Origin: Bremia lactucae
Lineage: Eukaryota; Oomycota; Peronosporomycetes; Peronosporales; Peronosporaceae
DNA: 25,740 bases
Direction of reading: 5' to 3'
Assembly: GCF_004359215.1 (NCBI RefSeq)
Contig: NC_090620.1
Coordinates: 1,902,398-1,928,137 of the forward strand
Below are positions 1-25,003 of the stretch, one piece after another (position 1 is the first letter of the stretch; the number at the start of each line of letters is the position of its first letter). The notes beneath the pieces are model-generated. The model had not been told where the DNA came from and did not search any database. It saw nothing but the letters and a program-made list of their open reading frames with translations. Made by a program: the position numbers and the translations under genes.

Positions 1-1991
1 CACAAGTACTCTCGCAATTATGCAGAGATGACAGTACATCTCTCTCGTCTCTTGAAAAAAGACGAGAAATGGTTATGGAACGCTGATTGTCAGCGTTCAT
101 TTGAAGGAATCAAGCAAAGCTTGATGCAATCGCCCATATTGGCGATTGCGGATCAAGACAGACCATTCCATGTGGTCTGTGACGCCAGCGATTTCGCAAT
201 CGGCTGTGCGTTAATGCAATACGATACAGATGGCGCGGAGCGCGTCGTCTGTTACCAATCGCGTCAGCTGCAACCAGCTGAACGCAATTATCCAGTGCAT
301 GACAAGGAACTCCTTGCCATGAAATATTCATTGGCTAAATTTAGGGTCTACCTCCTAGGAGATAGACCGTTCATCGTATATACGGACCATGCGTCATTAC
401 GCACGGCCGTCAATAGCCCACACCTCTCGCAAAGAATGGCGAGGTGGCTATCCTTCTTCGCGGAGTATAACTTCTCCGTCGAATATAAACCAGGACGACT
501 TAATGTCGTCGCTGATGCGTTATCACGCCGACCCGATTTCGAGTCAGCAGTGCACCCCAACAGTAAAAGTGATCTTACTGTTGCAACACTCACTACGAGT
601 GTTCCATCATCAACCTTAGTTGATGAAATAAAGAAAGCCTATAAAGAAGATAAGGACCTTCTTTGTCTGATGGATCATTTAATGAATCCATCCGATAAAT
701 CTTTTAAAGATCTACCGGCTTTATATCGATCGTCATCCGATCGATACACAACACGTAACGGCTTATTGTATTACACAGCCGTTACCGGCGACACCCCACG
801 TGTCGTCGTCCCGACTCACAATGATTTGCGCTTGCGCATCATGTATGAGTGTCACGATGCTCCAACAAGTGGACATCGTGGACGTGAGAAGACTTACCTC
901 ACGGTAAGTCGATACTTTTACTGGCCCCGCCAGTATCAGTTTGTGCGCAAGTACATTCGTGCTTGCGAGGTTTGTCAACGGGTGAAGCCTAGCCCTTCAT
1001 CCCGTGCACCTCTTCAACCTCTACCACTTCCGGTAGAGTGTTGGCAGTCCGTATCTATGGACTTCGTCTTCGGATTTCCCGAAGACGACCACAAAAACAA
1101 TGGAATCCATGTTTCTGTAAACAGATTCAGCAAGATGGTACATCTTGCTGCGGTACCAGAGTCGGTTACGGCTCCGGGTTGTGCCCGTGTCTTTATCGAC
1201 ACGGTATTTAAACTCCATGGGTTACCCTGTGAATTGGTCTTGCATAGAGATCCGAGATTCACGGCGTAGTTCTGGCAATCCGTGTTCCGATCGCTCGGAA
1301 CACGGCTGGCTATGTCAACATCCGATCACCCAGAAACGGATGGTCAAACAGAACGCGTAAATCGCGTCCTCGAAGAGATACTTCGAGGTCACGTCCAATC
1401 GTATCCGAATTGGAGCGAGTTTTACCTATGGTCGAATTCGCCATTTATAATTCGGTGCATGCTTCTACAACGCATACACCGTTCTTTGTGAATGGCTTAC
1501 GCCATCCTCGCATACCCACCCAATTAGAGGGATCCTCCAGTTTAAGGGTGGGGGGTGGGGGTGGACTCGCACAAGCAAATCCAATTCTGGCTCATGCTCA
1601 TCACGCATTGAAGTTAACAACGACGCGAGTGATGTCGATTTCTAGATCATTATCATGGCAGTACGCACAAAGCGTACTGAAAAAGACAAAAAAAATGAGT
1701 TAGCAGAAGAGTTTCTGCTAACTCGAGTGTCAATAATCCGTTTTGTTCAGGATTCCATTGCTAACGCAGTAAAGCGACAGAAACGGAATGCAGACAAACA
1801 TGGAAGAGCAATTGTTCATTCATTTACAGTTAATGATCTAGTTCTACTCTCTACGGTAAATTTACCTAAGCGATTAGTCACTAATGTGGGTAGCAGTAAA
1901 CTACTACCCAAGTTCATTGGTCCTTTCCATGTATTGCATCACAGAGGCAATGAGTACACAATAGAATTACCACGGAAGATGCGAACGCATC
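1..1991 (+). pseudogene. pol: gypsy pol: RNase H and integrase, disrupted (A1)
   Basis: The frame is open from base 1 to a TAG at 1267-1269. RNase H shows the acidic residues in CDASDF, HDKEL, YTDH and VADALSR. The linker leads to an integrase HHCC finger (ECHDAP, SGHRG, then CEVC) and the first catalytic Asp in SMDFVF. At the second catalytic position the usual SDRDPRF reads LHRDPRF, so that Asp is lost. The TAG follows RFTA, where B and A4 have GAA or GAG. The catalytic Glu lies downstream in ETDGQTERVNRV (in frame, about 1333-1368). A frameshift near 1418-1430 moves the next block to another frame, and a further shift puts the C-terminal domain (FIGPFHVLHHRG) at 1655-1990 in a third. It cannot make active integrase. 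Confidence 0.92.
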
Positions 1992-3032
1992 CTACACGTT
2001 TAAAAGGGAAAAGACATCCCCTTTTACCCTCTTCGAGTTGTCAACACAATACGGACAGGGATCACCCCACGTGAGGCACAGAAGCCCAGCCTCACGTGAC
2101 ACTCGATGCAATTTATACTTTGCCGCGGTTGGAGATCTTCTCTCAAATTTAACGCGATTCGCGTTAAGTTTTTGAAACCAGGCTTCGCGTCCAATGTCTT
2201 TGAAATTGCGAATTAACGCGCTCCAGGCTTGCATATGCGAGACTTTATCTCGCTTATTGATGCCACTAAACCATCGATGTTTAAGAAAAGCATCGAGATA
2301 AAAATCTTCCTCAGCGCGAAAGTTCTTCGCGCTGGGATCAAGGCCATGCAGCTTTGTCGCAATAAAAAGGGATATTTATTGTGAGGAGTAGTTTCTCCAG
2401 ACAAGCTATTGATTTAGCCGTTCTGGCAAAAGCCACGGCTTCTTTTCAGGGGCGTGATGAGACATTTTACTGTCTTCACTCCCCTGAGTGGTACCCACTG
2501 AAGCAGGGGTACCACAAGAACTTTTCTTACGATGACTTACGCCATCGTCGTCACCTTGCACAGAAACACGTGCAGGTGACCTTATGGGAGATCGTACGGG
2601 CGATGAGGGATCATCCTCATCGTCGGATCCAAATAGACTGCTTACTCGTCTATCAGAATGAGCCCTCTCATTCGAAGGCTCATAGTCAGCCGCCTGACGT
2701 CTATCAGGCGACTGTTCCATTCTCCCCGAGTCGGCCATTTCATCCGACTCGCATTCGTAGTCGACCTCCAAAGAGGGGTCGTATTCACGTGGTGAATCAC
2801 CACGTGCACTCGCAACATCTTGTGTTGTGCGAGTGGAAGACACTACGGCAGACGTTCCGTCTGCCGCAAGATATAACAGTGCGTCACCCGCGGCTGCACG
2901 AACCGCAGCCGAAGGCGCAGCACTATCGTCACCCCGCATGAGTTGATTCTTCATGCGATGGAATTTTAAATGATGGTTCTGACCAATCAACATCATTTTA
3001 AAAATTAAGTGGTCACATAGCGACCACTCCAT
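1992..3032 (-). pseudogene. opposite-strand ORF of the gypsy 3' region (A1 copy)
   Basis: Product not recognised. It starts with ATG at 3032, just inside the purine tract, and reads 208 codons to a TAG at 2406. The N-terminal half is hydrophilic, acidic and Ser-rich (SLFGSDDEDDPSS) with no signal peptide or membrane segment. A more conserved block resumes after the stop. The segment SGETTPHNKYP is shifted by one frame, and from 2360 to 1992 the text runs FYLDAFLKHRWFSG, QAWSALIRNF and GLLCLTWGDPCPYC in the original frame. The CPYC pair may bind metal, but that is a guess. Copies occur at 11282-11982, 19672-20242, 21077-21418 and 25004-25740. It could be an accessory antisense ORF of the element, as known for some plant gypsy lineages, or a captured gene. 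Confidence 0.7.
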
Positions 3033-4530: not shown

Positions 4531-5906
<1,376 letters not shown>

Positions 5907-6331
5907 TGTAACGGTGTACTGTTACATAAGTATTATTTCCTATGAGAGGAAATAAATAAAGAAGAATAAAATTATTATCTTCAGTAATTTTGACTTAAAA
6001 GTTCCAATATTTCCAAATTCGGTAATATTGATGCCAATCAGACATTAGCGCGATTGATTAGTTGATTTAAGTCTAAATCAACCCCGCCAATCGTTATAAG
6101 ACACGATTGTGCGGCGCGCAAGGAGGCGCCACACTTAGTTAGATTTTAATATAATAAGTTCAGTGAAAGATAAGAGATCGCAACGTAGGAAACTAAATAT
6201 ATTAATTCGGCTTTACTTTTCCCTAATTCTTATTATTTCAGTTTCGTTTGGTAGATGAAGCCCCTTAGCTACTTAAAAAAACTTTCTCTCTACCCTTGTG
6301 TACGTGAAGTTTATAGGCACCTAACCTACAC
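5907..6331 (+). repeat. left LTR of element B, 3' end deleted
   Basis: It begins with TGTAACGG and aligns by eye with the right LTR (12123-12627) through the shared CCTACAC at 6325-6331. Shared blocks include a run of GAGGAAATAAATAAAGAAGA type, CCCCGCCAATCG and GGCGCGCAAGGAGGCGCC. The last 59 bases present in the right LTR are missing here. Confidence 0.88.
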
Positions 6332-7215
6332 ATGGTAACCATGCTGCTAATATGCCGACGCTTCTGCGTCGACCCGAAAGCTTAATGTTCGATGTTCAAG
6401 GTAGACGAAGGCGACTCTGTTATAAAATGGTTCGTCGAATTAGACAACGCCATAAAAGCTTGCCGCATCAATGATAATGCGACAAAAGTGAAATTTGACA
6501 TGTCCAACTTAGCCGGACGTGCCAACTCTTGGGCCCTCGGGCTCAAGCATCACGACTCATTTCTCTTAGGTCGTATGAGGTCTTTAAGACCTGGCTCAGG
6601 CAAACCTTTGAGCCGCAACATGCCAAATTTAGGGCTCGAGCCGATCTCCTGGATTTGAAGTAGGGCAAGCGTGATCTTTACGCTGATGCCCAACATACAC
6701 GATACCTTGTAAGTTGTATCGTAGGTCATCCAATTGATGAACAAACACAGGTAACTGTTTTTGTTAAAGGTCTTACAGACAGTCCTATTAGGACTCACCA
6801 ACTCCGGCTAGAACTAGAGCTGATCAAGCTCTATCTGTTCCACTACAAAGGTCGCGCTTGATCAAACGATCTTCGTAGTGAAACAGAAGGACTTCAGCCT
6901 GAAATAGGATTTCGCCCATTCCGGTGCTTTTTAGTCCAAACAGACGACATTACAACGGAGGTCCAGAACCTACGAACATCTCGTATATGGAGACCGAGAA
7001 GCCTCACTTTCTTGAGTACAAACGATTGCGAAAATGCAATCGTTGTCAGAAGTCGGGCCACTACGCCTATGATTGTAGTGCCACACGCCCAGTGCCTAGT
7101 TCCACTGAGCGAAACGATCGACCTCCCGCTAGGAACAACAGAGGACGCGAATTCGACGCCGCTACGAAATCGTTACGGCGAGGCGGATTGTCAAAAGATC
7201 CACCCCTTTTAGCCA
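6332..7215 (+). pseudogene. gag: gypsy gag remnant (B)
   Basis: The capsid region is recognisable from its match to the A4 gag: IKWFVELDNAI and SNLAGRANSWALG at 6392-6560. It continues in other frames after a frameshift near 6565 (FEPQHAKFRARADLLDLK, then a TAG). Near the C-terminus at 7035-7076 is a perfect CX2CX4HX4C zinc knuckle (CNRCQKSGHYAYDC), the RNA-binding motif of retroelement nucleocapsid. The N-terminal part seen in A4 is absent because of the deletion that also took the LTR end. Not functional. Confidence 0.85.
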
Positions 7216-8170
7216 TTGACCTCTATTGTTTCATTTTTTTTTTTCATTATCGGATTCATTAAAAACCGTCGGGGTCAGTAGGCGCGGAGCGCCCTACTGA
7301 TCCAGCAACGTCAAAAGAAATTGCAGGGTTTTTTACGAAAGTTGCTGAACGCAAACAAACATTGTGTGCTGCCCGAGGGATGAGGTTAACCTCATCACTT
7401 TGAAAATAGTAGTTGCAAATAAAATGCCACTTAAGTCCCAAGTCGATTGTGGGCGTCGAATAATATTTTCAATCGACGCCAATCGCTAGAAGATTGCAGA
7501 CTCAAATTTATTGAGCGCAATATCCCTCTAACGATAATGACACACGTTAAAGGGTAACAAATACGATAAAATCATCATCGTACAAGATTTGCAAGACAAA
7601 TTTAAGTCATCCTTGGCTTACCATGGCTCAGAAAGTACGAGCCATGTATAAATTGGCAGCATCAAGCCGTGACAATGCCTGTCTCTTGTTCATCAGATGG
7701 CCAACTGATGAACGTCTTGGAGCGTCCATAAGCGTCTGGATGTCCAGACGCTTGTGGATGCTCCAAGACGTCCTACGAGTGAGGGCGATATCCTCACTGG
7801 TGGGTCGGTCATTAGTATGACTGCACAAGACCTCAGTGTAAATACCCAACACACTTGGAGTTAGATCCCGACGGCTGTGCACAAGCACAGGCAACGTCGA
7901 AGTTCGACCGTTCTGTGGGAATAAAACCCCGGATACCTGTGGTCAAAGGTCCCCAGGTACCCTTTGAAAAAAGTTCCAATGACGAAACTGAGACAATAGA
8001 TGTCATAATAAACAATGGATCAAGTGTAGGCGCTTATTCACTTGAATTAATATCGCCTCCGAAGTTAACTTTGGAGATAACTCAAATGCTAACGCTAGAA
8101 CCGAAACGGCTCTTGCGTGATCTGCGTAGTGGCAAAGTCAAGCAGGCCTGATGACAACTACGTGGCCGAT
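7216..8170 (+). pseudogene. gypsy protease and linker, badly decayed (B)
   Basis: From about 7262 the text SGSVGAERPTDPATSKEIA parallels SGSVGAQRPTDIATSREFA in A4, placing this at the start of the aspartic protease region. The catalytic DSG/DCG motif is not preserved: VDCGRRI near 7440 is the likely site. Downstream, matches to the A4 linker (KYDKIIIVQDLQDKFK for YDDDFIVLDLNDKFD, then the MNVLERP region) continue in broken frames. The stretch includes the inverted duplication at 7712-7771. Confidence 0.65.
7712..7771. repeat. 60-nt inverted duplication (hairpin) in element B
   Basis: Two 29-nt arms (7712-7740 and 7743-7771) are reverse complements apart from two positions, both of which are G-T pairs, with a 2-nt spacer TG. 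The left arm starts ACGTCTTGGAGCG. In A4 the matching place (15477-15515) has only the left arm and runs straight into the downstream text, so the right arm looks like an inserted reverse copy of the left. Confidence 0.9.
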
Positions 8171-8960
8171 ATTCGTTCGGCAATAGTATTTCCTAAAAGC
8201 GAACGACGAACAAGAAATAGCGTTTGACAAATTCTTTGCCGAACGCTTAGCAGCGGGCCATGTGAGGGAGTCAAATTCCCACATAGTTCCTCGACCTTCT
8301 GTATGCGTAAATACAACAGGAGGATGGAGAAATGTGCATGCATCCAATAAATTGAACGCTGCAACTGTACCGGCTCAAACGCCGATACCACGAAAAGACG
8401 TAGTTTTGATGGTATATCAAAGAGTACTATATTTTTATTTATTAGTCAATGGATCTGATGGATGGATTCTATCAGATCCTTACGCGTGAACAAGATATTC
8501 CGTTCACAGCAGTAAGCACCCCAAGCGGTATGCTATGGGAGTGGCTAGTCATGCCACAGGGACATAGTAGTGCCCCTGCGACATTCAACAGATTTGTAAC
8601 CAATCTGTTAAGATCGGTGCGGGCATTTGCACGGGCTATTTTGATAAGGTCTTCGTTCATAGCAGAGCCATGATTGGAAAGTCGGATTTTGAAGTACATC
8701 GTACCCACGTCCAAAAGGGTTTTACACTAATGAGTCAGCACGAGTTGTATGCAAACCTCAAGAGGTGTTTATTCGCTGCAAGCGAAATAGCACTTCTTGG
8801 GTGCACCGTGTGTAAACACGGTGTAAGCCCGGATCCAAAAAGAATAAGAAGATCGCCGATTGACCTGTGCCAGTCGATGTAAAGGGACTTAGAAAGTTTT
8901 TGGCTTAGCGGCGCAGCTGCACAAGTACCTACGCAATTATGCCGAAATGACAGTATCTCT
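8171..8960 (+). pseudogene. pol: gypsy reverse transcriptase (B)
   Basis: RT blocks are read in several frames: HVRESNSHIVPRPSVCV, then MDLMDGFYQILTREQDIPFTAV at 8449-8515, and the primer-grip region WEWLVMPQG. The catalytic box usually reads YFDD; here it is YFDK (about 8637-8648), losing the second Asp. Downstream, YANLKRCLFAASEIALLGC at 8670-8882 is the usual end of the fingers/palm and thumb region. The change at the active site and the shifts at 8489 and 8673 make it non-functional. Confidence 0.88.
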
Positions 8961-9490
8961 TTTTTTCTTTGTTGAAGAAAAACGTTAAGTGGTCATGGAA
9001 CGTTGATTGTCAGCGCTCCTTTGAAGGTATCGAGCAACGCTTGATGCAATCGCCAACTTGGCAATTGCTGACTAGGACCAAGCTTTTCATGTGGTCTGTA
9101 AACGCCAGCGATTTTGCAATCGGCTGTGCGTTAACGCATTATGACACAGACGGCGCAGAGCGCGTCGTCAATCGCGTCAGCTTCAACCAGCTGAACGCAA
9201 CTACCCTGTGCATGGCAAGAACGACTTGCCATGAAATATGCATTGGCTAAGCTTAGGGTCAATCTCTTTAAAGATAGACCCTTCATTGTATATACAAACC
9301 ATGCGTCTTTACAGACGGCCGTAAACAGTCCACACCTCCCACAAAAAATAGTGCGATGGCTGTCTTTCTTCGCCGGGTACAACTTCTCCGTGGAATATAA
9401 ATCTGGACGAATTAATGTCGTCACTGATGCCCTTTCGCGCCGGCCCCATTTTGAGCCGGCTGCGCGAATCAAAAGTGAGCATAAGGCCAT
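8961..9490 (+). pseudogene. pol: gypsy RNase H (B)
   Basis: The domain is recognised from WSWNVDCQRSFEGIEQ, VNASDFAIGCALTHYDTDGAE and, after a frameshift around 9215-9231, KYALAKLRVNLF, FIVYTNHASLQTAVNSPH and SGRINVVTDALSRRP. Two of the acidic catalytic residues are altered: the Asp of CDASDF is now in a NASDF context, and YTDH reads YTNH. It runs straight into the integrase linker. Confidence 0.88.
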
Positions 9491-11285
9491 GTTGCAACAT
9501 AAAGTGTTCAGTCGTCGACGACCTTAGAAGAGCTTATCAAGAAGATATAGCTCTTAAAGGGTTGATGGATTACCTTAGAAATCCATCCCAACAATCCTTA
9601 AAAGAATTGTCGAAATTGCATAGATCCTCAACAGATCGATTCACAACACGAAACGGGTTACTGTATTACACAGCCATTGCTGGTTACACACCTCGTGTCG
9701 TCATCCCCACCACAATGATTCGCGTTTACGCATCATGTACGAGTACCATGATGCACCAATAAGGGGTCATCGTGGACGTGAGAAGACCTATTTCACGGTA
9801 AGTCGCGCCACGCCACTATGATTCTGTCCGCAAGTACATACGTGCTTGCAATGTTTATCAACGGGTGAAGTTTAGCGCTTCATCAGTGCTTCGTTACAGC
9901 ATCTGCCTGGTCCGGCAGAGTGTTGGCAGTCTGTATCCATGGACTTCGTCTTCGGATTTCTTGAAGACGAGCAAAAGAATAATGGTATTCTTGATTTTGT
10001 TGATGGTTTCAGCAAAATGGTACATCTTGCTGTGGTACCTGAGTCGATCTGAGTCAGAGGCTGTGCTCGTGTCTTTGTCGACACGATATTTCGACTCCAT
10101 GGCTTACTCCGCAAGCTGGTCTCAGATCGAGACCCTAGATTCACGGCGGAATTTTGGCAAATTGTGTTCAAATCACTTGGAACACAACTAAAAATGTCAA
10201 GTTCTGATCATGCTGAAACAGATGGTCGGGTGTAGCCGGCAAACCGTATTCTTGAAGAGATACTTCGCGGAAACGTCCCCTCTTTTAAGAGTTGGAGGGA
10301 TTCTTGCCGATGGTAGAATTCGCCATCAACAATTTAGTGCATGCTTCCACAAAGCATACACCATTTTTTGTGAATGGCTTACGCCACCCACGTATACCAG
10401 CCTTATTTGAGAGTGACCTTATCCAAGGGGGGAGGTACTTGCTCGAGCAAAGAAACCTCAAGCTCTTGCTCATAACGCAACAGCACTAAGGTCAATGCGA
10501 TGGATACCATTGTTGGTTTAATTAATATTGAAGTGGACAAAATCAGCAATAACAATACGCTATTACTGACCTTGACAACGATACTGAAAGACTCAGCATC
10601 AAAAACAAAATTATTAATGAGAGCGATAATACTCTCAATAATGAGGAGATTGATATCTCCACAGTGCGAGCCGAAAACAAAAATAAAACCGAGTCAGTAG
10701 GCGATTTACTGTTCGTTAGAAAAGCAGGGGTCCGTTACGTACAGGATTTTATCGCTGATGCGGTGGACAAACACAAACGGAACTCTGACAAAAATGTAAG
10801 AGCAAACATACTTTATTTAATGTCAATGACCTAGTCCTACTTTCTACGGTAAACCTACTAAAACACGTAGTGATGAATGTAGGCAGTAATAAAATGCTGC
10901 TCAGATATATCGGCCCGTTTCGTGTACTATATAGCTAAGGCAACGCATACACGATCGAGCTGCTACGCATCCTACGTTTTATGCTGGGCGTCTCCACCCG
11001 TACCATCAGTACAAGGCTTCTTCCGATTCCAGCTTACACTGGTACGGTCAAGGGCATCCACCAAAACCTAAGGGTTCAAAGCCAAAGACTTATTGGCTCG
11101 GAACAGAGTCTGCTTCTCTTCAACCAGGCGATCCACTCTTTCCTCCAAGGAACAGATCTTCTGACGAGATCTCACCAGCTCATTTTGAAGGACTGATGTG
11201 TCCTTTCGTTCACCAGATGATCAGTCGCAATCTGCGCACAATTTCTCAAATGGTCATGAGAAACATTACCGACTGTCACCTCTAA
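9491..11285 (+). pseudogene. pol: gypsy integrase with an intact pol tail (B)
   Basis: The finger region is broken (YEYHDAPIRGHRGREKTY across a frameshift near 9725). The core shows SVSMDFVFGF, LVSDRDPRFTAEFW and DHAETDG, so all three DDE positions can be found, but with stops and shifts between them. The C-terminal part from about 10930 to the TAA at 11283-11285 is open for more than 100 codons (HPTFYAGRLHPYHQY onward). No chromodomain follows. The final TAA overlaps by two bases the TAG that ends the opposite-strand ORF, so the two frames meet tail to tail. Confidence 0.85.
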
Positions 11286-11982
11286 CACCAGAAAGTGGCA
11301 TCGATGAAGAATTCCGTCTCAACCTCACCAAGCTTGTGAAGCATGAATGAGTCGATTAGCGGAACATGATATCGGTCGCTGGTCATAACAGCCCAATGAA
11401 TTAGACTAAACTTGGAGAGCAACCAAGGCCTTTTTTCAGGAGCGAACCGCAACGTATTGCTGCCCCACTCCTCTTGGATCATTTAGAGTGAACGTTAACT
11501 TGGCCCTGGGAGCGATCCCTAAAATCACTCCTTCCCTAGTGATGCAAACTAGCACTACCAGCAGCACTTTTCCCTTCGCGACCACTTAGTTCCTGGTGAC
11601 GCATACTAACGCCACCACAGTGGTCATCGCCCACGGAGTCATCTGATGATGAACTCCTCACAAAATAGATCCGATGAATCGAACGACCTCGTCATTACCT
11701 CTCTGCTTGTAACGTTCGATGCCAAAGATTTAACGGACTCACCCTTGGGTGATCCAGCGGCCTTTACAGTAGATACTGAGTTAAACGATGTAGGTGACTT
11801 GTCACCGTCACCAGAAATGTCATCAACAGATGACATATTTCAGTCACCTCACTCGGACTAGGAGGTGACGTTTTTCCCGCAGCAGACGCGCTAGCGTCTG
11901 CAGAAACATCGTGCATCACCAAGAGCTGCACTGATCCGTTTGCGGCCTCACGGCCCACTCGCACAGACTTATTCGTTGCCAT
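11282..11982 (-). pseudogene. opposite-strand ORF of the gypsy 3' region (B copy)
   Basis: Relative of the A1 ORF; function unknown. An ATG at 11982 opens MATNKSVRVGREAANGS, followed by a Ser/Asp-rich stretch read in a second frame (SVDDISGDGDKSPTSF near 11836). The C-terminal frame at 11482-11282 has APEKRPWLL, matching APEKKPWLL of A1, then TSDRYHVPLIDS and EVETEFFIDATF. Those match TNERYKIPLLNS and EYECEFSIDAFF at 21077-21418. It ends at TAG 11284-11282, before the Cys-pair block of A1. At least one frameshift separates the pieces. The position between pol and polypurine tract is the same as in A1 and A3. Confidence 0.65.
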
Positions 11983-12108
11983 CTTGATCAAAATCAATTA
12001 ATGAAAATTAAAACGGTATTTTGACACAAACCAATAATGCAAAATTACAGGAAAAGACATGACAGTATTTTCTATCACCCTATTCAGTCACTATAGTGAC
12101 AGTTGGTT

Positions 12109-12122
12109 AGGGGGAGAGGTGA
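12109..12122 (+). promoter_or_regulatory. polypurine tract of element B
   Basis: AGGGGGAGAGGTGA lies directly against the right LTR, where the plus-strand primer is expected. A perfect 14-bp palindrome, GTCACTATAGTGAC, precedes it at 12087-12100 and is partly kept in element C (about 20955-20968). Confidence 0.85.
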
Positions 12123-12627
12123 TGTAACGGAGTGTTCAGTTGCATAAGTATTAATTCCTGTAAGAGGAATAATAAATATTAGTTGCTATGAGATGAAATA
12201 AATAAAGAAGAACAAAACAATTATCTTTAGTAATTTTGACTCAAATAGTTGCCGAATTCAGTGATATTGATGCCAACAAGACATTAGCTCTATTGATTGG
12301 TTGATTTAAGTCTTAATCAACCCCGCCAATCGTTGTAAGACACGATCGTGCGGCGCGCAAGGAGGCGCCTAAATTTATTAGAGTTTAATATAATAAGTTC
12401 AGTAGTAGATAAAAGATCGCTACGTAGGAAACTAAATATGTTAGTACAGTTTTACTTTTCTCTAATTCTAATCCTTTGAATTACCTTTGGTGGCTAAAGC
12501 CCCTCAGCTACTGGATAACTTCCTCTTTACCCTTGTGTACGTGAAGTTTCGAGGCATCAAACCTACACTGTAATCAGTGTAAGCTTTACTAGTACTGATC
12601 AGTACTAGTGAAGGGTGCCCCGTTACA
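12123..12627 (+). repeat. right LTR of element B
   Basis: A 505-bp LTR from TGTAACGG to CCCCGTTACA; the ends form the short inverted repeat also seen in family A. Near the 3' end it carries a perfect 22-bp palindrome (12588-12609, arm ACTAGTACTGA). AT-rich blocks in its first half could hold promoter signals, but I cannot place a start site. Confidence 0.9.
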
Positions 12628-13332
12628 AAGAGCAGCTGCAAATCAGGGTGGTTGTCGGTATGCCACAGGGCTTAAGTAGAGCATGGCCGCAATAGGCGAG
12701 CCCGCCTACATAATCAGTATGTAGGCGGGCACGTCTTAATGCGGCTACGCTCTTCTTAAGCACACCCTAGCACAGCGAGGAAGCGGTTTGACCGTCTTCT
12801 CTCATGTGCAGTGAGGTTGTTGGTGGGCGCCTAAGCGATCTCACCCAACGAACTATAAGAAAGTGTTGGTGATACATTTCCTCTTTGAAACGCTTCTTTG
12901 GAGACCTTCCCTAGCTCCGTTTAAATACTTTATGAGCCCACTGGCGGGTGATGAAGTATTTAGGGGCGCAACAAACGATTACGCAGGGAAAATGCGTATA
13001 AGAAAGAAGCGCAGGTGGCTACTCGCGAAAGGGCACGACTGAGAAAGAGTACTTGGGCGCTCGCGAAAGGGGTGTGCCAAGTGGAATCCTTACCAGGCAG
13101 CGACATTGCCGCAGGGCTGGCTAAGATTTCTTCTCTTTTAGACTCGATGGATAAATAGCGTCAGGGGCCAGGGCAATACCATTCTGAGGGCCAAGTAATA
13201 CCACCTCTTAATTTGTATGCAGGCTAACTTGGATCGATGAGGCAGGCCACACGATGAAACGTGAAAGTGGACCTTGGAGTTGGGTTACAGACATCAAGTG
13301 TTTTCGCTAAGCGAAGTGGAGTACATGGTTTA
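12628..13332. other. unassigned stretch between elements B and A4
   Basis: About 700 bp without a clear gene. The frame near 12655 reads GMPQGLSRA, which resembles the RT motif MPQGLSNAP but is too short to trust. Another short frame near 13095-13158 reads SDIAAGLAKISSLLDSMDK before a stop. It has the same dense inverted repeats as the flanking elements, for example an 8-bp pair AAATACTT/AAGTATTT around 12925-12961. It is therefore more likely decayed retroelement than host DNA. Confidence 0.4.
12671..12760. repeat. 90-nt imperfect hairpin
   Basis: The left part, beginning CTTAAGTAGAGC, pairs with the right part ending GCTCTTCTTAAG. The inner 13 bp (12700-12712 with 12718-12730, GCCCGCCTACATA) are perfect around a 5-nt loop. 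The outer parts pair with mismatches. It is the largest fold-back in the region outside the named elements. Confidence 0.85.
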
Positions 13333-13796
13333 TGTAACGGGGTGTGTCGTTACATGAAATTAACACTTAAAGGTTGTTAATTAATATATTATCTAAAAGG
13401 TAGATAATATTTGGAGAATATTACTTTATATAGTAATATTCTAAAAGCTTATCCATTAATAGATATAGACCATTACATCTACTTCTCCGCGGTCCGGCCA
13501 GCGCTAGACGCGCACAAAGAGAAAGACAGATAAGACTTTTAGTACATGTTTTGTATTAGTTTATAATTAAGTAAGTATTAAGAAGATAGACAAGAAGAAC
13601 TTATATATATTAATACAGTTTTTAATCAACCCTCTTTAAAGCAAGTGTTTTAAATAAAGTCTACCACTGCACGTACTAGTATACGTGAAGTGACGTGAGG
13701 CACCACTCGCACTGAGGCAGTGCGAAGTGGACTTGTACTGAAGCAATGCGAATTGGGCTTGTACTGAAGCAGTACAAGTCAGTATTGCCCCGTACA
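13333..13796 (+). repeat. left LTR of A4
   Basis: It runs from TGTAACGGGG to CCCCGTACA, one T shorter than the usual CCCCGTTACA end. The first 100 bases match the right LTR closely, but the middle (about 13485-13530, CCGCGGTCCGGCCAGCGC) is quite different. Near the 3' end several hairpin units with the apex ACTGAxxCAGT lie in a row. Confidence 0.9.
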
Positions 13797-13798
13797 CC

Positions 13799-13816
13799 TG
13801 GTAGCACTTTGTAGTC
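13799..13816 (+). promoter_or_regulatory. primer-binding site of A4
   Basis: TGGTAGCACTTTGTAGTC starts two bases after the left LTR. TGG complements the CCA end of a tRNA, and TGGTAGC resembles the primer site used by Ty3-type elements (initiator tRNA-Met). The host tRNA is not in the window, so the assignment is tentative. Confidence 0.6.
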
Positions 13817-13846
13817 CGTCCAAGGATCCCAGTTCAATCATTTAAC

Positions 13847-14850
13847 ATGGACATGTCAGATGATAATGGAAATATGCATCACGTTTCGCGTGATAGCTAC
13901 TCCTTTCTAAGTGACATAGAAAGGAGTGCGGTCAAACGAATGAGTTCGACCGTAGGAAATGATGCAATCTTGGCAATGCTGTCAAATTTGGACAGAGATG
14001 CCCCTATTCAGTCATCGCCAAGTTCATACAACATAAACTTGACGAGATGAAGGAAAAGGTAGCTTTGCTGAATTCGCAAGGCCCTCAACAGGCAGAACTG
14101 TTGAGGGTACAACAGGTATAGACCCCTATACCTAAGATGACGCACACGCGTCGTCCCGAAACCTTAAAGATTGACATCTCTAAGTATAGGGGAGTCGAAG
14201 AAGGCTCCCTCTAAAGATGGTTTGTCGAGTTGGACGATGCCATAAGTGCTCGTCACATCGTCGACGAGCAACTGCAAATCGCATTTGCTCAATCAAACTT
14301 GGCAGGTCGTGCCAAAACTTGGGCATTGGGCCACAAGTTGCGCGACCCATATGTCTTTAGGTCGCTAGCTTTTAAAGCCCGGCTCAAACAGATGTTTGAA
14401 CTTCCTAAGGCTGAGTTCAGAGCTCGATCAGAGCTTCTGAAACTCAAGCAAGGCAAGCGTGATGTTCACGCATATGCCCAGCACATACGACTCTTAGCGA
14501 TTTGTATCGCAAACATTCATGAACACACGTGTATTACGGTGTTCATGCAAGGTCTTGCGGATGGTCCCGTAAAGACCCACCTGTTCCGCTTGGTACTAGA
14601 TACGCTTGAAGAAGCATTACCAGTTGCGGAATAGGAGGACTTAAGCTTGTGACAGGCTCAAGCTGGTTTGTCATCATATCGTCCTTCAAGACGAAACAAG
14701 CTTGGAGGTCCAGAACCTATGGACCTCTCTTTTGTCAAAAGCGATTAACCTCGCTTATCGAACAATTAGCGATTGCAGAAATGCAATTGCTGTCAAAGTT
14801 AGGACATTACGCTCATGAGTGTAGTGCTCCACGCCCAGTACCGAGAGGTA
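13847..14850 (+). pseudogene. gag: gypsy gag (A4)
   Basis: The first frame starts with ATG 13847 (MDMSDDNGNMHHVSRDS) for 67 codons; text then shifts near 14000 to a frame carrying KFIQHKLDEMKEKVALL. That frame has stops at about 14119 and 14212. The capsid core is open at 14218-14631: RWFVELDDAI, SNLAGRAKTWALG, FRARSELLKLKQGKRDVHAY, a domain shared with B. The nucleocapsid knuckle at about 14778-14822 (KCNCCQ, then LGHYAHEC) is split by a frameshift. Not functional as it stands. Confidence 0.88.
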
Positions 14851-15866
14851 CTGAACGTAATTATGGACCGAATGCCAAAAAGAGCAACGGTCGCGGGTCC
14901 GACGTTGTTGAGAAATCGCAAAAGCGAAGCGGACCGCAAAAAAAACGGTCGGGGTCAGTAGGGGCGCAACGTCCTACTGATATAGCAACCTCAAGAGAAT
15001 TTGCAAATCTTTTGACAAAAGTTGCTCCAGACACACAGTCATTTTGGGTCTCTGCGCCTGGCGATGAGGTATCCCTCATCACCTTAAAGTTAAAAGTGAC
15101 ACAAACTCTGCCACTTGGAGCCCTATTGGACTGCGAGCGTGTCATCAGACGTATAAACGTTAACGGGTGCAATGGAAAGACGAATAACTTTATTCGTCGC
15201 CAGACGCTTGAGGTCGTAGGCGCGCGACATCCCCCCAACGAGGATGACGGTGCGTCTAGCGACAAGCGTATCGATAACAGTAATGAAACGCGTAGTGAGA
15301 TTTCACCACACGTTAAAAGATTAACAGTACGATGATGATTTTATCGTACTGGATTTGAATGACAAATTTGATGTCATTCTTTGTTTACCTTGGCTCAGAA
15401 AATACGAGCCAAGGATCAGCTGGCAGCATCGATCCGTAAGATGCCTGTCACTTGTTCAACAGATGACCATCTGATGAACGTCTTGGAGCGTCCTCAAGCG
15501 TGTGGATGTACTACGACTGAGTGCGATGGCCTCACTTGTGGTACGGTCGTTAGTACGACTGCACAAGATCACAGTGTGATTATTAATCACCCTGTGGAGT
15601 CATTTGCCGGTGGCTGTGCGAATGCACAGGCAGCGCCGAAGGTCAACCACTCGAATTTGTCGAGTGGATCGAGACATGAATGTACACCTAGCAGGCGACA
15701 TTCAAGGAAGATATCGATTGCCCAAAAAGGACATCATGACGATCCTAGGTCGAGTAGAGAGTCGACCATAGAGGACCCGACTGTGATAGCGCAACCACAG
15801 TCAAAAGTCGTTGAGGGAATAAGTCCCCACGTACTTGAGGAGAAATCTCCTCACAATAGTTAATAC
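14851..15866 (+). pseudogene. gypsy protease and linker (A4)
   Basis: Following the zinc knuckle, the frame 14649-15335 reads SGSVGAQRPTDIATSREFA and then the protease-like VSLITLKLKV and GALLDCER. In the relatives I know, the last motif is LLDCGAS, so the Gly of the D(S/T/C)G active site is lost here. Text resumes in another frame at about 15332 (DDDFIVLDLNDKFDVIL, PWLRKYEPRISWQHRS). It then runs as an open linker to 15863 with MNVLERPQACGCTTTECDG. The linker is Ser/His-rich without a recognisable domain. Confidence 0.75.
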
Positions 15867-16239
15867 TGAAGTGACTAGACTTCAGCATCACGAGGGATAA
15901 ATCTCTCGGCAGGCTGTGAAAAAGGGGTCCCATGAAAAATCGAGACATTTGATGTCTTGGTTACTTACGGATCAAGAGCAGGCGCTTATACTCTTGATCT
16001 GTATACGCCTCCGAAGTCAATTTCGGAGACACCTGATCAGTTCTTGAGAGATCTGCGTACTCGTCGCAGAGGACGAAGACGTTATCGATATTCGGTCAGC
16101 GGTTGTATAAAGCGTTTGTCTTAAGTGACCAGTTGTATATTTTGGGAAAACGTAAAACTGGTCACTTAATACAAACCCTTAATACAAGAATTCGATTGAG
16201 TTTTGGGATGTATTCCCTGAAACATTTTCATGCTAGTTG

Positions 16240-17060
16240 CCTAAGGATAGAGGCACTCGACATGACATCGAGCTCAAACCAAGCTCAAAGTACTGTGTCA
16301 TGAAGCAGTAGCCACTGCCTCGTGAACATGTACTTGTGATCGATAAATTCTTAACCGATCGAATTAAAGCGGGCCATGTAAGGGATTCAACCTCCCCACA
16401 TAGCTCTCCGACCTTTTGTGTGCAAAAGGCCACAGGAGGGTGGCGGATAGTGCACTCACTCAACAAACTGAATAGGTATCGGCGTTGAGCCGGTACCGTT
16501 GCAGCATTATACTAAGAGTACGATCTTTTCGTCTATGGATCTGATGGATGGGTTCTATCAAATCCATATGCGTGAACGGGACATTCCGTACACAGCAGTG
16601 AGCACTCCCAATGGGATGCTCAGGGAATGACTAGTAATGCCGCAGGGGCTTAGTAACGCCCCTGCAACATATAACGGATGCGTAACGATTCTTTTGTGAC
16701 TGGTGCGAGAATTTGTACCGGATTGTTATGACGATGTATTCGTCCATAGCCGGTCCATGGATGGAAAGACGGACGTAGAAGTTCATAAAACTCACGTTAG
16801 TCAGGTTCTTAAACTTTTGCAAAAGCATAAGTTGTAAGCAAATTTCAAGAAGTGAAATTCGCTGCAATCGAAATACCACTTCTTGGGTGCATTGTAGGCA
16901 AACACGGCTTGCGCCCTGATCCCGAAATGATAAAGGTGATCACCGACTGGCCAGTTCCAGTCGATGTCATGGAACTTAGAAAGTTCCTTGGTTTAGCGGC
17001 GTACTTGCACAAGTACTCACGCAATTATGCCGAGATGACAATTCATCTCTCTCGTCTCGA
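16240..17060 (+). pseudogene. pol: gypsy reverse transcriptase (A4)
   Basis: RT text is spread over all three frames. Recognisable pieces are GHVRDSTSPHSSPTFCV-like sequence near 16370, MDLMDGFYQIHMRERDIPYTAV near 16535-16600, a stop inside the usual WEWLVMPQG, and CYDDVFVHSRSMDGKTDVEVH near 16710-16790. The catalytic DD pair is kept but the preceding YF is changed. IPLLGCIVGKHGLRPDPE and VELRKFLGLAAYLHKYSRNYAEMT lead into the connection. The 380 bases before it (15867-16240) hold only decayed linker. Confidence 0.85.
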
Positions 17061-17731
17061 AAAAAATACAAGAAATGGATATGGAACGCTGGTTGTCAGC
17101 GCTCCTTTCAAGGTATCAAGCAAAGCTTGATGCATTCGCCCATATGGCGATTCCAGATCAAGACAGACCATTCCATGTGGTCTGTGACGCCAGCAATTTC
17201 GCAATCGGCTGCGCGATAATGCAATACGACACAGACGGCGCGGAGCGCGTCGTCAGTTACCAATCGCGTCAGCTACAACCAGCTGAACGCAATTACCCAG
17301 TGCATGACAAGGAGTTCTTTGCCATGAAATATGCATTATCTAAATTTAGGGTCTATCTCCTCGGAGATAGATCGTTCATCGTATATACGGACCTTGCGTC
17401 ATTACGCACGGCCGTAAACAGTCCACACCTCTCGCAAAGAATGGCGAGGTGGCTGTCCTTCTTCGCGAAGTATAACTTCTACGTCGAATATAAACCAGGA
17501 CGGCTTAATGTCGTCGCTGATGCGTTATCACGCCGACCCGATTTCGAGTCAGCTGTGCACCCCAACAGTGAAAGTGATCTTACTGTTGCAACACTCACTA
17601 CTAGTGCTCCGTCATCAACCTTAGTTGATGACATAAAGAAAACCTATAAAGAAGATAAGGACCTTCTATGTTTGATGGATCATTTAATGAATCCATCCGA
17701 TAAATCTTTTAAAGATTTACCGGCTTTGTAT
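17061..17731 (+). pseudogene. pol: gypsy RNase H and linker (A4)
   Basis: Open in one frame from 17075 to 17749. It has CDASNFAIGCAIMQYDTDGAE, HDKEFFAMKYA, FIVYTDLASLRTAV and GRLNVVADALSRRPDFE. The acidic residues of the first, second, third and last motifs are present, so this is the best kept domain of A4. Two substitutions against A1 are DASDF to DASNF and YTDH to YTDL. The frame ends at a TGA after RSSSD. Confidence 0.9.
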
Positions 17732-17825
17732 CGATCGTCATCCGATTGATACACGACACGCAATAATTTATTGCATTACGATCGTCATCCGATTGATACA
17801 CGACACGCAATAATTTATTGCATTT
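17732..17825 (+). repeat. 47-bp tandem duplication in A4 pol
   Basis: Two head-to-tail copies (17732-17778 and 17779-17825), each starting CGATCGTCATCCGATTG. Each also contains the near-perfect palindrome GCAATAATTTATTGC. A1 has a single copy of this segment, so the duplication is specific to A4; it also repeats a TGA stop. Confidence 0.93.
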
Positions 17826-19083
17826 CACAGCCGTTACCGGCGACACTCCACGGGCCTTCGTCCCAACTCACAATGATTTGCACTTGCGCATCGTGTATGA
17901 GTTGGTCACGATGCAACAACAAGTGAACATTGTGGACGTGACAAGACTTATCTCACAATAAGTCGCGACTTTTACTGGCCCCGCCAGTATCAGTTCGTGC
18001 TTGCGAGGTTCAACGGGTGACGCCTGGTGACGCCAGACCTTCTACCCGTGCGCGTCTTTAACCTCTACCACTCCCGACAGAGTGTTGGCAGTCGGTATTT
18101 ATCGAATTCATTTTCGGATTTCCCGAAGACGATCACAAAAACAATGGAATCCTTGTTTTTGTAGACAGATTCAGCAAGATGGTACATCTTGCTGCAGTAC
18201 CGGAGTCGATTACGGCTCCGGGTTGTGCCCGTGTCTTATCGACATGGTTTTCAAACTCCACGGTTTACCCCGTGAATTGGTATCGGATTGAGATCATCGA
18301 TTCACAATGGAGTTCTGTCAATCCGTGTTCCGAGAGATCGGAACACGGCTGACTATGTCAATACCCGATCGCCCAGAAACGGATGGTCAATCAGAACGGT
18401 AAATCGCGTGTTTGAAGAGATACTTCGAGATTACGTCCAATCGTATCCGAATTAATGCGAGTTTTAGTTGATGGTCGAATTCGCCATCAATAATTAGGTG
18501 CATGCGTCAACAACGCAAACACTCATCTTCGTGAATGACTTACGCCATCCTCTCATTTCCATCCAATTAGAGGGATCCTCTTGTTTAAGGGGGGGGGGCT
18601 CGCACGAGCAAAACCATTTCTGGCGCATGCTCATCATGCGTCGAAGTTAACAACGACGCGAATGAGGTCGATGTCGATTGCTTCGACATCGAAGATGAGA
18701 TAAATCTCATGGCAGTGCGCACAAAGCGCACTGAAAAAGTCAAAACAAATTAGTCAGCAGAGAGATTCCTGCTGGCTCGAGAATCAGTAATCCGTTTCAT
18801 ACAGGATTTCATTGCTAACGCAGTGGACCGTCAGAAACGGAACGCAGACAAACATGGAAGAGCAAACGCTCTTTCATTTAAAATTAATGATCTAGTGCTA
18901 CTCTCTACGGTAAATTTACCTAAGCGTTTGGTCACTAATGTGAGTGGCAGTAAACTACTACCCAAGTTCATTGGGCCTTTCTGTGTACTGCATCGCAGAG
19001 GCATTGCGTACACAATAGAATTGCCACGTAGGATGCGAATACATCCTACGTTTTACGTTTGTGGGCTCCGCCCGTACCATTAG
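17826..19083 (+). pseudogene. pol: gypsy integrase (A4)
   Basis: The HHCC finger is damaged: SGHRG reads SEHCG and the CxxC region is partly deleted (17990-18020). Core pieces in several frames include MVFKLHGLPRELVSD (18240-18288) followed by TGA, where the second catalytic Asp lies. The Glu region PETDGQSER (about 18370) is followed by TAA. The C-terminal domain is well kept and open at 18823-19083: VDRQKRNADKHGRA, DLVLLSTVNLPKRLV, KLLPKFIGPFCVLHRRG, HPTFYVCGLRPYH. The GGGGGGG run at 18591-18598 matches the G-rich linker in A1. Confidence 0.88.
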
Positions 19084-19699
19084 TACGCGGTTACTTACGA
19101 GGACAGATCCGACCATCTCTTTTAAGAATTCATGCAAGATTCTCGTGGTCACGAACCACATTCTTATGCTGAATCTGGAGATTTTCATATCGGGTCCGAA
19201 GGTCCTCGGAACCGTGATAATCTAGCGACGGTTCATCGCGAAGAGCGTGATAAGTCCGTTCGTACTCCGTCATTGAGAACGCACTCTTTGAACGGTTTTC
19301 AACCGTTCGATATGGTGAACCTGCACCGTCTACTCCAATGGTTGACGCTTACCGTGCTCGTGTTCAAACCCTCCTCCCAATAAATAAGGCTAGCGGTCGT
19401 GTTTGTCGATCTTCGACTCTAGATCCGACGCACGGTTCGGATCTAACTTTTAATCCGCCACCACAACCACTGGTGAATTACCACGGTTGTCACTGTTTTT
19501 TAGTGGAACGTATTCTAAACCCCGTGATTTGAAGGGGCAGCGAACGAGTCGTCTGGTTCGCTGGAGTGGTTATCCACCTTCGCATGACACATGGGAGCAT
19601 TGTTCCCAGCTGGTTGTTGACGTTGAGGGCCTTGTCTGTCAGTATGACGAGACTCATCCGATGGATCAGATGAGACATTTTATTGGTTCACTCCCTTGA
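19084..19699 (+). pseudogene. pol: pol C-terminal tail with chromodomain (A4)
   Basis: After the integrase C-terminal domain comes a hydrophilic linker and then a chromodomain split by one frameshift near 19515. The text is FLVERILNP in one frame, then DLKGQRTSRLVRWSGYPPSHDTWEH in the next. Aromatic positions F, W and W correspond to the methyl-lysine cage of chromodomains. It ends LVCQYDETHPMDQ and a TGA at 19697-19699. Chromodomains at this place mark chromovirus-type gypsy elements, where they steer integration to modified histones. None of the other copies in the window shows this domain. Confidence 0.88.
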
Positions 19700-20242
19700 G
19701 TAGTACCCACTGAAGCAGGGGTACCACAAAAACTTTTCTTACGATGGGTTACGCATCGTCGTCACCTTGCACAGAGATACGTGCAGGTGACCGTATGAGA
19801 GATGGTACGGGCGATGAGGGATCATCCTCACCGTCGGATCCAAATAGACTCTTTACTCGTCTATTAGAATGAGCCCTCTCATTCGAAGGCTCATAATCAG
19901 CCGCCTGACGGGTATCAGGCGACTGTTCCATCCTCCCCGAGTCGGCCATTTCGTCCGACTCGCACTCATAATCGACCTCTAAAGAGGGGTCGTACTCACG
20001 TGGTGAATCACCACGTGCACTCGCAACACCAAGTGTTGTGCGAGTGGAAGACACTACGGTAGACGGAACGTCTACCGCAAGAGATAACAATGCGTCACCC
20101 GCGGCTGCACGAACCGCAGCCGAAGGTTCAGCACTATCTTCACCCCGCATGAATTGTTCCTTCATGCGATGGAATTCAAAATGATGGATCTGACCAATCA
20201 AAAACATTTTAAAATTAAGTGGTCATTTACCGACCACTCCAC
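19672..20242 (-). pseudogene. opposite-strand ORF, C-terminus missing (A4 copy)
   Basis: Same family as the A1 ORF. The start codon has become GTG (20242-20240), and a missing A in the following A/T run shifts the frame. From about 20207 the text is open and close to A1: LIGQIHHFEFHRMK, SPREYDPSLEVDYECESDE, SLFGSDGEDDPSS, SPARISVQGDDD. A one-base loss then ends it at 19749. Homology to A1 stops at about 19672, exactly where the chromodomain frame of pol ends. The conserved Trp/Cys block is therefore absent. Confidence 0.75.
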
Positions 20243-20270
20243 CTAATGACATTCGGAGTGATTGACGTTT

Positions 20271-20283
20271 AAGGGAGGGGTGA
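20271..20283 (+). promoter_or_regulatory. polypurine tract of A4
   Basis: AAGGGAGGGGTGA directly precedes the right LTR. The same tract is seen, reversed, beside the A3 LTR, and its first seven bases remain at the end of A1. Confidence 0.88.
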
Positions 20284-20733
20284 TGTAACGGGGTGTATCG
20301 TTACATGAAATTAACACTAAAAGGTTGTTAATTAATATTATCTAAAAGGTAGATAATATTTGGAGGAAATTACTTTATATAGTAATTTCCTGAATTCTTA
20401 TCCATAAATAGGTATAGACCATTATGTCTATTTATTCCGCAGACTAATCAGCTGTAGAAGTAATCAAAGAGAGTTACGAGATAAGATAGATAAGAATTCA
20501 TTTACATGTTTAGTATTAGTTTATAGTTAAGTCAACATTTACAAAGATAGATTAACAAGACACTTAACTATATTAATACAGTTTTCATTTTACACTCTTA
20601 AGCTAACTTGCCTTAAGAGAAGTCTTCCTCTATACGTACAGTGTACGTCACCTAACGAGAGGCACCACTCACATCTGAAGCAGTGTGAAGTGGACTTGTA
20701 CTGAAACAGTACAAGTCGCAGTGCCCCGTTACA
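20284..20733 (+). repeat. right LTR of A4
   Basis: A 450-bp LTR from TGTAACGGGG to CCCCGTTACA. It is much closer to the LTR of A3 (24512-24962, reverse) than to its own partner at 13333. For example, GACTAATCAGCTGTAGAAG is shared with A3 but not with the left LTR. An 11-bp hairpin (20364-20374 with 20381-20391) and a terminal one (arm ACTTGTACTG) are present. Confidence 0.92.
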
Positions 20734-21443: not shown

Positions 21444-22272
21444 AGTGCTGAAGCACAATTTCAGCCGTTAACGCTGGCAGCCATGAAGGCATACCACCTG
21501 ACAAGCTCATTAGTCTCTGACATAAGAGAGAGCTACAGTCAGGACGACCATTGTCGCCTGCTGTCGGCACTTTGGTGAACGAAAGGTTACCCTTCCGTCG
21601 CACCTGAAAGCTAAGTTAATTCGCTTTAGTCACAGCGATTGCCTGTTATGGCATCAGCTGTCACCTTGATATCCCTTGATAATCTATGTGCCTCATGACA
21701 CAGATTTCAAGCTGATGATCCTTCAGGAGCTCCATGATGCACCATCTAATGGGTATCTGGGCCGTGAAAAGACATTCTTACGAGTGTCAGAGGAATTTTG
21801 GTGGCCACACCTATATAGATGGGTGGCCAACTACATTCGCTATTGCGAACAGTGTCAGCGCATTAAGCCTGCACCGTCCAGCAGTGCGCCACTAAAGCCG
21901 CTACCGATTCAAACCAACTGTTGAAAGTCACTAAGCCTGGACTTCATGTTTGGCATGCCGCCCGATCATAAGGGTCGGACAGGGCTAGTCGTCTTTGTAG
22001 ACAGACTGACCTAAATAGTGAATTTAGCCCCATGTAAGACATCGATCACAGGCAAGGAGGCAGCTCTCTTGTTCCTGGATCATGTTTACCGACTACACGG
22101 GATGCCCGAGTCCATAGTATCGGACCGGGATCCACGTTTTACGTCTGGTTTTTGACGACATGCGTTCGAGCTGCTAGGTAGCAAGCTCCACATGTCGACC
22201 GCAGATCACCGTCAGACCGATGACCAAAAAGAACGTGCCAATCGGGTCGTGGCGGATGTCTTACGCACGATA
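21444..22272 (+). pseudogene. pol: gypsy integrase fragment of another lineage (D)
   Basis: From 21450 a short RNase H-integrase linker (QPLTLAAMKAYHLTSSLV, SYSQDDHCRLL) leads, after a frameshift near 21570, to the HHCC finger at about 21727-21870. The finger reads LHDAPSNGYLGREKTF, then CEQC; the second His is Tyr. The core has SLDFMFGMP, VSDRDPRFTSGF and DHRQTDDQKERANRV, so all DDE residues are present but separated by TGA 21922, TAA 22012 and TGA 22154. Wording differs clearly from families A and B, and the sequence lacks their dense inverted repeats. It is cut by the assembly gap. Confidence 0.88.
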
Positions 22273-24962: not shown

Positions 24963-24977
24963 CCACCCCTCCCTTAA
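24963..24977 (-). promoter_or_regulatory. polypurine tract of A3
   Basis: On the minus strand TTAAGGGAGGGGTGG precedes the LTR, the same tract as in A4. Confidence 0.87.
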
Positions 24978-25003
24978 ACGGCAATCACTCTGAATGTCAT
25001 TAG

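What the first reader, a model, noticed from the sequence alone, without database searches (positions are those of the whole stretch)
1..2000. Gypsy coding sequence paved with short perfect inverted repeats
In the first 1.4 kb of A1 pol I counted by hand 17 perfect hairpins with arms of at least 7 bp and loops of 3-9 nt. Examples: 78-86/90-98, 126-134/141-149, 607-614/619-626, 724-732/738-746, 891-898/903-910, 1064-1073/1079-1088, 1128-1137/1141-1150, 1280-1290/1295-1305. A 12-bp pair follows at 1697-1708/1713-1724. For random sequence of even composition I estimate under one. The same texture runs through A4 gag, B pol, the opposite-strand ORF (2068-2077/2089-2098, 2786-2795/2797-2806) and the LTRs. 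The 1-kb GAPDH gene shows one such pair and lineage D almost none. It covers both coding strands and the LTRs, so it is a property of the element's nucleic acid, not of one protein. Possible causes are template switching by the reverse transcriptase that perfects imperfect palindromes, or selection for genomic RNA folding. I do not know of a description of this.
Basis: partly seen in the sequence, partly recalled or inferred. Interest (0 to 1): 0.87.

Follow-up and report, generated by a model that had tools for sequence, protein, structure and literature searches.

The report
Retrotransposons paved with template-switch hairpins
In what is likely the lettuce downy mildew genome, one large group of Gypsy jumping genes is packed with short perfect DNA hairpins, far more than the host genes and Copia elements sampled, and flipped hairpin loops between copies point to a strand-switching copying error that likely built the hairpins while the elements replicated.

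Summary
Window 1-1400 holds 19 non-overlapping perfect hairpins (arm >=7, loop 3-9) against 0.52 expected; no dinucleotide shuffle (0 of 200) reaches that, and no codon-preserving shuffle of 1-1269 (0 of 300) reaches its 17. All 11 pairs quoted are exact. Eight kinase loci and eight copies of one Copia family show no clear excess; most Gypsy loci sampled do, A-type elements most.

Between copies, hairpin loops are exactly inverted in 15 of 1,649 differing loop pairs, at 11 hairpins, against 1 reversed and 0 complemented; in two cases an arm was repaired too. This is the known signature of short-range template switching.

Selection for sense-RNA folding is not supported: both strands fold equally, and A-C mismatched stems outnumber G-U. 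Hairpins decline with copy age, so host replication probably does not build them.

Best reading: template switching during the Gypsy replication cycle. That stage is inferred, and switch rates in recent copies look too low for the full density. Host: probably Bremia lactucae. New variant of a known mutational kind.

The parts
1..1400 (+). A1 Gypsy pol (RNase H-like and integrase zinc-binding domains) with 19 perfect hairpins, arm 7-11, loop 3-9
   Evidence: 44 match rows (about 40 places) in the genome, a lower bound
301..327 (+). A1 side of inversion place E1 (DKELLAMKY); A4 and L012 read DKEFFAMKY
1128..1150 (+). hairpin E7; one copy in L026 carries loop GTA changed to TAC (V to Y)
1280..1305 (+). 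11-bp hairpin E5; loop TCTC in most copies, TCGC here, GAGA (exact inversion of TCTC) in A4 and L027
1697..1724 (+). 12-bp perfect hairpin
2149..2167 (+). hairpin E10, loop ATT or AAT in different copies
2406..3032 (-). opposite-strand ORF (208 aa, no Pfam match) with 9 hairpins
2846..2866 (+). hairpin E13, loop TTC; inverted (GAA) with paired arm change at 20057-20077
4531..5574 (-). GAPDH gene, host control, 1 hairpin
5926..12568 (+). B element between related ends 5926-6331 and 12172-12568; 23 hairpins, 3.5 per kb
7562..7582 (+). B side of inversion place E4: exact reverse complement of 15328-15348
13332..20733 (+). A4 region; 58 hairpins, 7.8 per kb; pol piece 17779-18679 has 16 identical places in the genome, itself included
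18323..18348 (+). A4 side of E5, loop GAGA (inverted)
18668..18692 (+). A4 hairpin whose loop is the exact inversion of the loop in L014 (same place as E9)
20283..20705 (+). LTR with hairpins at 20283, 20309, 20334 and 20364; the fourth has a different perfect arm sequence in 3 of 6 aligned LTRs and is imperfect in the other 3
21592..22146 (+). lineage D pol piece, no perfect hairpin; the D region has negative folding z
24510..25740 (-). inverted C piece (LTR plus opposite-strand ORF relative), 15 hairpins, 12.2 per kb

Best explanation
The A and B Gypsy elements of this window carry about 7 to 36 times more short perfect hairpins than shuffled sequence, and these hairpins are likely the footprint of short-range template switching during the elements' own reverse-transcription cycle. 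Shown: the density; no clear excess in 8 host kinase loci and 8 copies of one Copia family; exact inversion of hairpin loops between copies; two copies in which an arm was repaired together with the loop inversion. Inferred: when a growing strand reaches one arm of an imperfect inverted repeat, its end pairs with the other arm (on itself or on a second strand), copies it for a few to a dozen bases and switches back. A self-template repairs an arm; a second strand of the same sense inverts the loop. Repeated over many transposition rounds this would turn chance quasi-palindromes into perfect ones all along the element. After insertion, point mutation erodes them. Also inferred: that the polymerase is the Gypsy reverse transcriptase.
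For: Density against dinucleotide and codon shuffles (other families L053 8 vs 1.22 and L076 5 vs 0.33, 0 of 200 each, but L077 1 vs 0.18 and L078 0 vs 0.36). Loop inversions: 15 of 1,649 distinct differing loop pairs, at 11 hairpins by my grouping, against 1 reverse and 0 complement; E1 is a further place found by the cluster scan, which gave 21 distinct reverse-complement clusters against 5 reverse, 2 complement and 1 direct among 16,150 redundant pairwise clusters. E3 (L014, 9-nt loop) and E6 (L018, 5-nt loop) combine inversion with repair of the left arm. The four inversions checked in pol (E1, E5, E6, E7) change the protein, E6 to a stop, as expected of mutation. The inverted E5 loop lies in a 901-bp piece with 16 identical places, so a switched product has spread. 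Controls: Copia 14 observed vs 11.0 expected, kinases 14 vs 11.8, mean folding z between -0.96 and +0.49; low-density Gypsy loci 26 vs 9.1 over 11 loci, grouped after seeing them (sums). Age: hairpins fall with private changes, Spearman -0.58, p 0.002, 26 of 30 sequences.
Against: Rates: in window 1-1500, 774 variant alleles among 30 sequences stand beside only four inversion places (E1, E5, E6, E7). At mismatches inside quasi-palindromes, perfecting changes are not in excess: 3 seen vs 3.7 expected, n = 7. A crude neutral simulation reaches only about 7 hairpins per kb even with 0.2-0.4 effective repairs per substitution, below the 10.8 per kb of A1. No cluster with an indel fits a switch (0 of 3,503). 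Many loop inversions occur in one sampled copy, so some may be host-phase events after insertion. The Copia and other-repeat inversion controls are small (0 of 3 and 1 of 15 loop pairs), and Copia is one family only.
Confidence: 0.55

Rival explanations
1. Selection for local hairpins in the element's nucleic acid (genomic RNA, cDNA or both) keeps the density high; template switching only flips loops of hairpins that exist for that reason.
For: Extreme folding over coding, antisense-ORF and LTR-side sequence. Stems diverge slightly less than other sites between young lineages (three A1 copies to A4: 0.071-0.079 vs 0.095-0.109). One LTR hairpin is perfect in three different arm versions (3 of 6 aligned LTRs), and some pol stems keep pairing through double changes (6 of 117 pairs from L003 to B). 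In the most diverged bin G-U is slightly ahead of A-C (565 vs 488).
Against: Sense and antisense fold equally. Stems with one A-C mismatch outnumber those with one G-U: 33 vs 15 distinct hairpins, 42 vs 19 in all. Single-side changes give A-C 147, 299, 215 vs G-U 87, 186, 133 in the three closer identity bins; between young lineages the preference is mixed (L003 to A4: 5 A-C, 7 G-U; A4 to L003: 5 and 0). Shared changes hit stems as often as other sites: 39 over 381 stem sites vs 93 over 895 outside. Positions turn over: of 14 alignable A1 hairpins 1 is still perfect in B.
Confidence: 0.25
2. Ordinary host DNA replication makes and keeps the hairpins by template switching in resident copies.
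For: Template switching with arm repair and spacer inversion is known in yeast genes (PMC8604942, passages read). Many inversions here are in one sampled copy.
Against: No clear excess in 8 kinase loci or 8 copies of one Copia family of the same genome. Hairpins are lost, not gained, with copy age.
Confidence: 0.08
3. The hairpins are a relic: a past burst of palindrome formation in an ancestor of these Gypsy families, now only decaying.
For: No excess of perfecting changes in recent copies (3 vs 3.7); families with lower density still fold below their shuffles; age decay.
Against: A4 is young (16 identical 901-bp places), is about 10 percent diverged from A1 and still has 7.7 hairpins per kb in pol, some of them imperfect in A1. 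Inversions are still seen in single copies. B has hairpins of its own.
Confidence: 0.12

Closest known systems
Template switching between short inverted repeats in Saccharomyces coding genes (PMC8604942; abstract and passages seen)
   Same: Arm homogenisation and exact spacer inversion with multinucleotide protein changes; 10 spacer inversions reported, one of them with arm conversion.
   Different: There events scattered over host genes; here a dense paving of retrotransposon families, without clear excess in sampled host genes.
Template-switch mutations that create and maintain RNA hairpins in rRNA genes (PMC8794818; passages seen)
   Same: Loop inversion and simultaneous compensation explained by one switch.
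   Different: There DNA replication of genes for a selected structural RNA; here coding and LTR sequence of mobile elements with no clear sign of sense-RNA selection.
Small hairpin-loop inversions in chloroplast genomes (search listing only; details recalled)
   Same: Loops flanked by short inverted repeats flip between relatives.
   Different: Plastid DNA and host polymerase; whether plastids have a palindrome excess of this kind was not looked up.
Genome-scale ordered RNA structure of RNA viruses (search listing; definition recalled)
   Same: Long coding sequence with folding energy far below shuffles.
   Different: Here both strands fold equally and A-C outnumbers G-U, so an RNA-level cause is not indicated.

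Membership tests
Short-range template-switch (quasi-palindrome) mutagenesis | loops or spacers exactly inverted between relatives | tested here: met
   15 of 1,649 loop pairs vs 1 reverse, 0 complement
Short-range template-switch (quasi-palindrome) mutagenesis | arm repair concurrent with inversion | tested here: met
   E3 and E6; E7 and E11 are ambiguous because the repaired arm also occurs with the normal loop
Short-range template-switch (quasi-palindrome) mutagenesis | excess of single perfecting changes over other changes at mismatches | tested here: inconclusive
   3 seen vs 3.7 expected, n = 7, no excess but low power
Structure-selected RNA (ordered viral RNA type) | folding energy below shuffles | tested here: met
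   mean sense z -7.9 for A1 and -4.3 for A4
Structure-selected RNA (ordered viral RNA type) | sense strand favoured, G-U tolerated over A-C | tested here: not met
   in three of four identity bins, with G-U slightly ahead in the most diverged
Ty3/Gypsy LTR retrotransposon | gag, RNase H-like and integrase domains, LTRs | tested here: met
   Pfam matches PF17917, PF17919, PF17921, PF24626 (A1) and PF03732 (A4 region); LTR repeats. Domain order of a whole element not tested: parts are withheld as N
Reverse-transcriptase-made change | change arises in the cDNA step and not after insertion | not testable with these tools
   needs marked transposition or many LTR pairs

The most novel reading that the evidence does not exclude
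The reverse transcriptase of these Gypsy elements is intrinsically palindromising: it switches template at short inverted repeats so often that it rewrites its own genome into wall-to-wall perfect hairpins, a mutational drive that sets the sequence texture, protein changes and folding of the most abundant class of DNA in this oomycete without being selected for.
Probability: 0.4. Interest if true: 0.82.

Novelty: new variant of a known kind. Interest (0 to 1): 0.66.

Why it matters
Template switching is known mainly as an error of DNA replication. Here it seems to shape the sequence of whole retrotransposon families, in a genome that, if it is Bremia lactucae, was reported with Gypsy elements as 58.6 percent of contig sequence (PMC6570648, passages seen). 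If the reverse transcriptase does it, the elements are a natural recording of that enzyme's strand switching, relevant to retroelement evolution, to false signals of RNA structure or compensatory evolution, and to hairpin-derived small RNAs. The question can be tested with one enzyme and one template.

Tried and rejected
Chance and base composition: rejected. Codon usage: rejected. Direct-repeat texture: no consistent excess. RNA selection: see rivals. Host replication: disfavoured by Copia, kinase and age controls. Switches with an indel: none of 3,503 clusters; one A4 hairpin at alignment column 1485 looked like an arm rewritten with a one-base insertion but was not picked up by that scan. 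DNA transposon control: PF13843 found nothing here or in the control genomes, so no DNA-transposon comparison was made. Relatives in other organisms: two viral-contig scans found none; other oomycetes were seen as proteins only, so no DNA test across species. The first per-hairpin table mixed strands and was discarded. A first cluster scan was replaced. Folding one search failed on an N window (its 10 A1 windows are valid: z -4.4 to -9.8 sense, -3.8 to -10.0 antisense) and was completed. The script labels L053 as 1-2421 but used bases 1-2283. Rows dropped: insertions relative to the window copy; 4 of 30 sequences with under 1,300 aligned bases; hairpins gapped in the partner, 0-4 per comparison. 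In the listings of searches I saw no paper on hairpin-paved retrotransposons; that library holds open-licence papers only and I opened three of them.

Full report
WHAT IS THERE. The window lies in an unnamed 116-Mb genome. It is an oomycete by its GAPDH (93 percent to Phytophthora fragariae, 90 percent to Hyaloperonospora brassicae) and probably Bremia lactucae: a pol-like protein named for that species, 96 percent identical to A1 over 56 percent of the query, sits on a contig of 3,964,575 bases, the length of contig C7 here. Window 1-3067 is Gypsy element A1 (RNase H-like, integrase zinc-binding and SH3-like domains). A4 (16528-20733) and an inverted piece C (24510-25740) are relatives. B (5926-12568) is 77 percent identical to A1 in pol. 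A D piece (21592-22146) shares 44 percent of residues with A1.

Nineteen perfect hairpins in 1,400 bases against 0.52 expected; 17 in 1-1269 against 0.76 with codon-preserving shuffles. Mean folding z per 300 nt: A1 -7.9 sense and -7.8 antisense; A4 -4.3 and -4.8; B -3.4 and -3.7; D -2.8 and -3.0; GAPDH -0.7 and -0.3; one Copia copy -0.2 and -0.3; one kinase locus -0.5 and -0.4. Inverted repeats with arm >=8 are in excess mainly at loops up to 15 nt (83 against 3.0), with a weaker excess at 16-80 nt (28 against 13.2).

WHERE IT OCCURS. Loci found by the integrase zinc-binding family (12 of 150 listed places taken): L049 19 hairpins against 1.1; L051-L055, one family, 9 to 16 against 1.05-1.4; L044-L048 and L050 3 to 4 against 0.65-1.4. 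Seven further pieces, two of them about half N or more, gave 0 to 9; 11 low-density loci together give 26 against 9.1. Mean folding z was negative in all these Gypsy loci, from -0.5 (L050) to -3.6 (L072, 3 windows). Of 12 arbitrarily placed 4-kb pieces three were all N; three with A-element sequence (L032, L034, L036) had 18 to 21 hairpins; the other six had 1 to 7, L033 being mostly N. Eight Copia copies, one family at about 94-99 percent identity, gave 14 against 11.0, and eight kinase loci 14 against 11.8. With codon shuffles: Copia ORFs 5 against 2.8, host ORFs 7 against 4.4, L053 pol 8 against 1.22, L076 5 against 0.33, L077 1 against 0.18, L078 0 against 0.36. The property is graded across Gypsy loci and not clearly shared by the Copia family or host genes sampled.

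LOOP INVERSIONS. In 34 loci (30 A1 matches, the upstream piece and three A-type pieces) plus the window, 1,649 distinct pairs of aligned hairpin loops differ by 2 or more bases. Fifteen are exact reverse complements, at 11 hairpins by my grouping; 1 is a plain reversal and none a plain complement. Haplotype tables give polarity in several: E6 has CTACA in most aligned copies and a related form in B, but TGTAG only in L018, together with repair of the left arm; E3 has a 9-nt loop flipped only in L014 of 15 copies, with repair of the left arm, though L014 also differs in the flank; E5 is TCTC in most copies and GAGA in A4 and L027; E9 is flipped in L012. E7 and E11 are flipped in single copies, but their repaired arm also occurs with the normal loop elsewhere, so concurrence is not shown there. 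In pol, four checked inversions change the protein: LL to FF (E1), SL to EI (E5), V to Y (E7), and a stop (E6).

AGE AND CONSTRAINT. Among 26 of 30 A1 sequences, hairpin number falls as private changes rise (Spearman -0.58, p 0.002); of 26 hairpin places two were in a single sequence and one in two. Stem sites change as often as others: 0.46 (left arms), 0.51 (right arms) and 0.42 (outside) variant alleles per site; for alleles shared by copies, 39 over 381 stem sites and 93 over 895 outside. Between young lineages stems are slightly slower, 0.071-0.079 against 0.095-0.109, with 7 of 18-19 hairpins still perfect in A4; against B 1 of 14; and G-U and A-C changes there are mixed. Over the copy alignments A-C single-side changes exceed G-U in three of four identity bins and not in the most diverged. 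Within sequences, stems with a single A-C mismatch outnumber those with a single G-U (33 against 15 distinct hairpins, binomial p 0.013). A sense-RNA structure under selection should show the opposite.

INTERPRETATION. Exact loop inversion and joint arm repair are the published signature of polymerase switching between inverted-repeat arms (PMC8604942 and PMC8794818, passages). I infer that this acts in the Gypsy replication cycle, because host genes and the Copia family sampled lack the texture and resident copies lose it. The weakness is quantitative: recent copies show few switches and a simple simulation falls short of the density. So either switching is or was much more frequent in the cDNA step than sampled copies reveal, or selection on density (not on position or sense strand) adds to it.

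Noticed in passing
window 2406-3032 (-), 19749-20207 (-), 25004-25510 (+): An opposite-strand ORF without Pfam match (searched for 2406-3032) has 36 homologues (46-88 percent identity, all listed from 'ena') in the protein collection, which suggests a conserved antisense gene in the 3' part of these elements.
   Followed up: partly
window 17779-18679: Sixteen places in the genome, this one included, are identical over 901 bases although the pol frame of this copy is interrupted (ORF 17075-17749 ends early); probably a recent non-autonomous amplification.
   Followed up: partly
window 20283-20705: This LTR has at least 40 places in the genome (itself included) at 99-100 percent identity.
   Followed up: no
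A-type elements, sense strand: A-C mismatches in near-perfect stems are about twice as common as G-U; on the minus strand these are G-T pairs. Unexplained; may point to minus-strand synthesis.
   Followed up: partly
window 7562-7582 and 15328-15348: The same hairpin in two elements, each the exact reverse complement of the other.
   Followed up: yes
L038 and L039: One loop inversion (TTAT to ATAA) also between two other repeat pieces of the genome.
   Followed up: no
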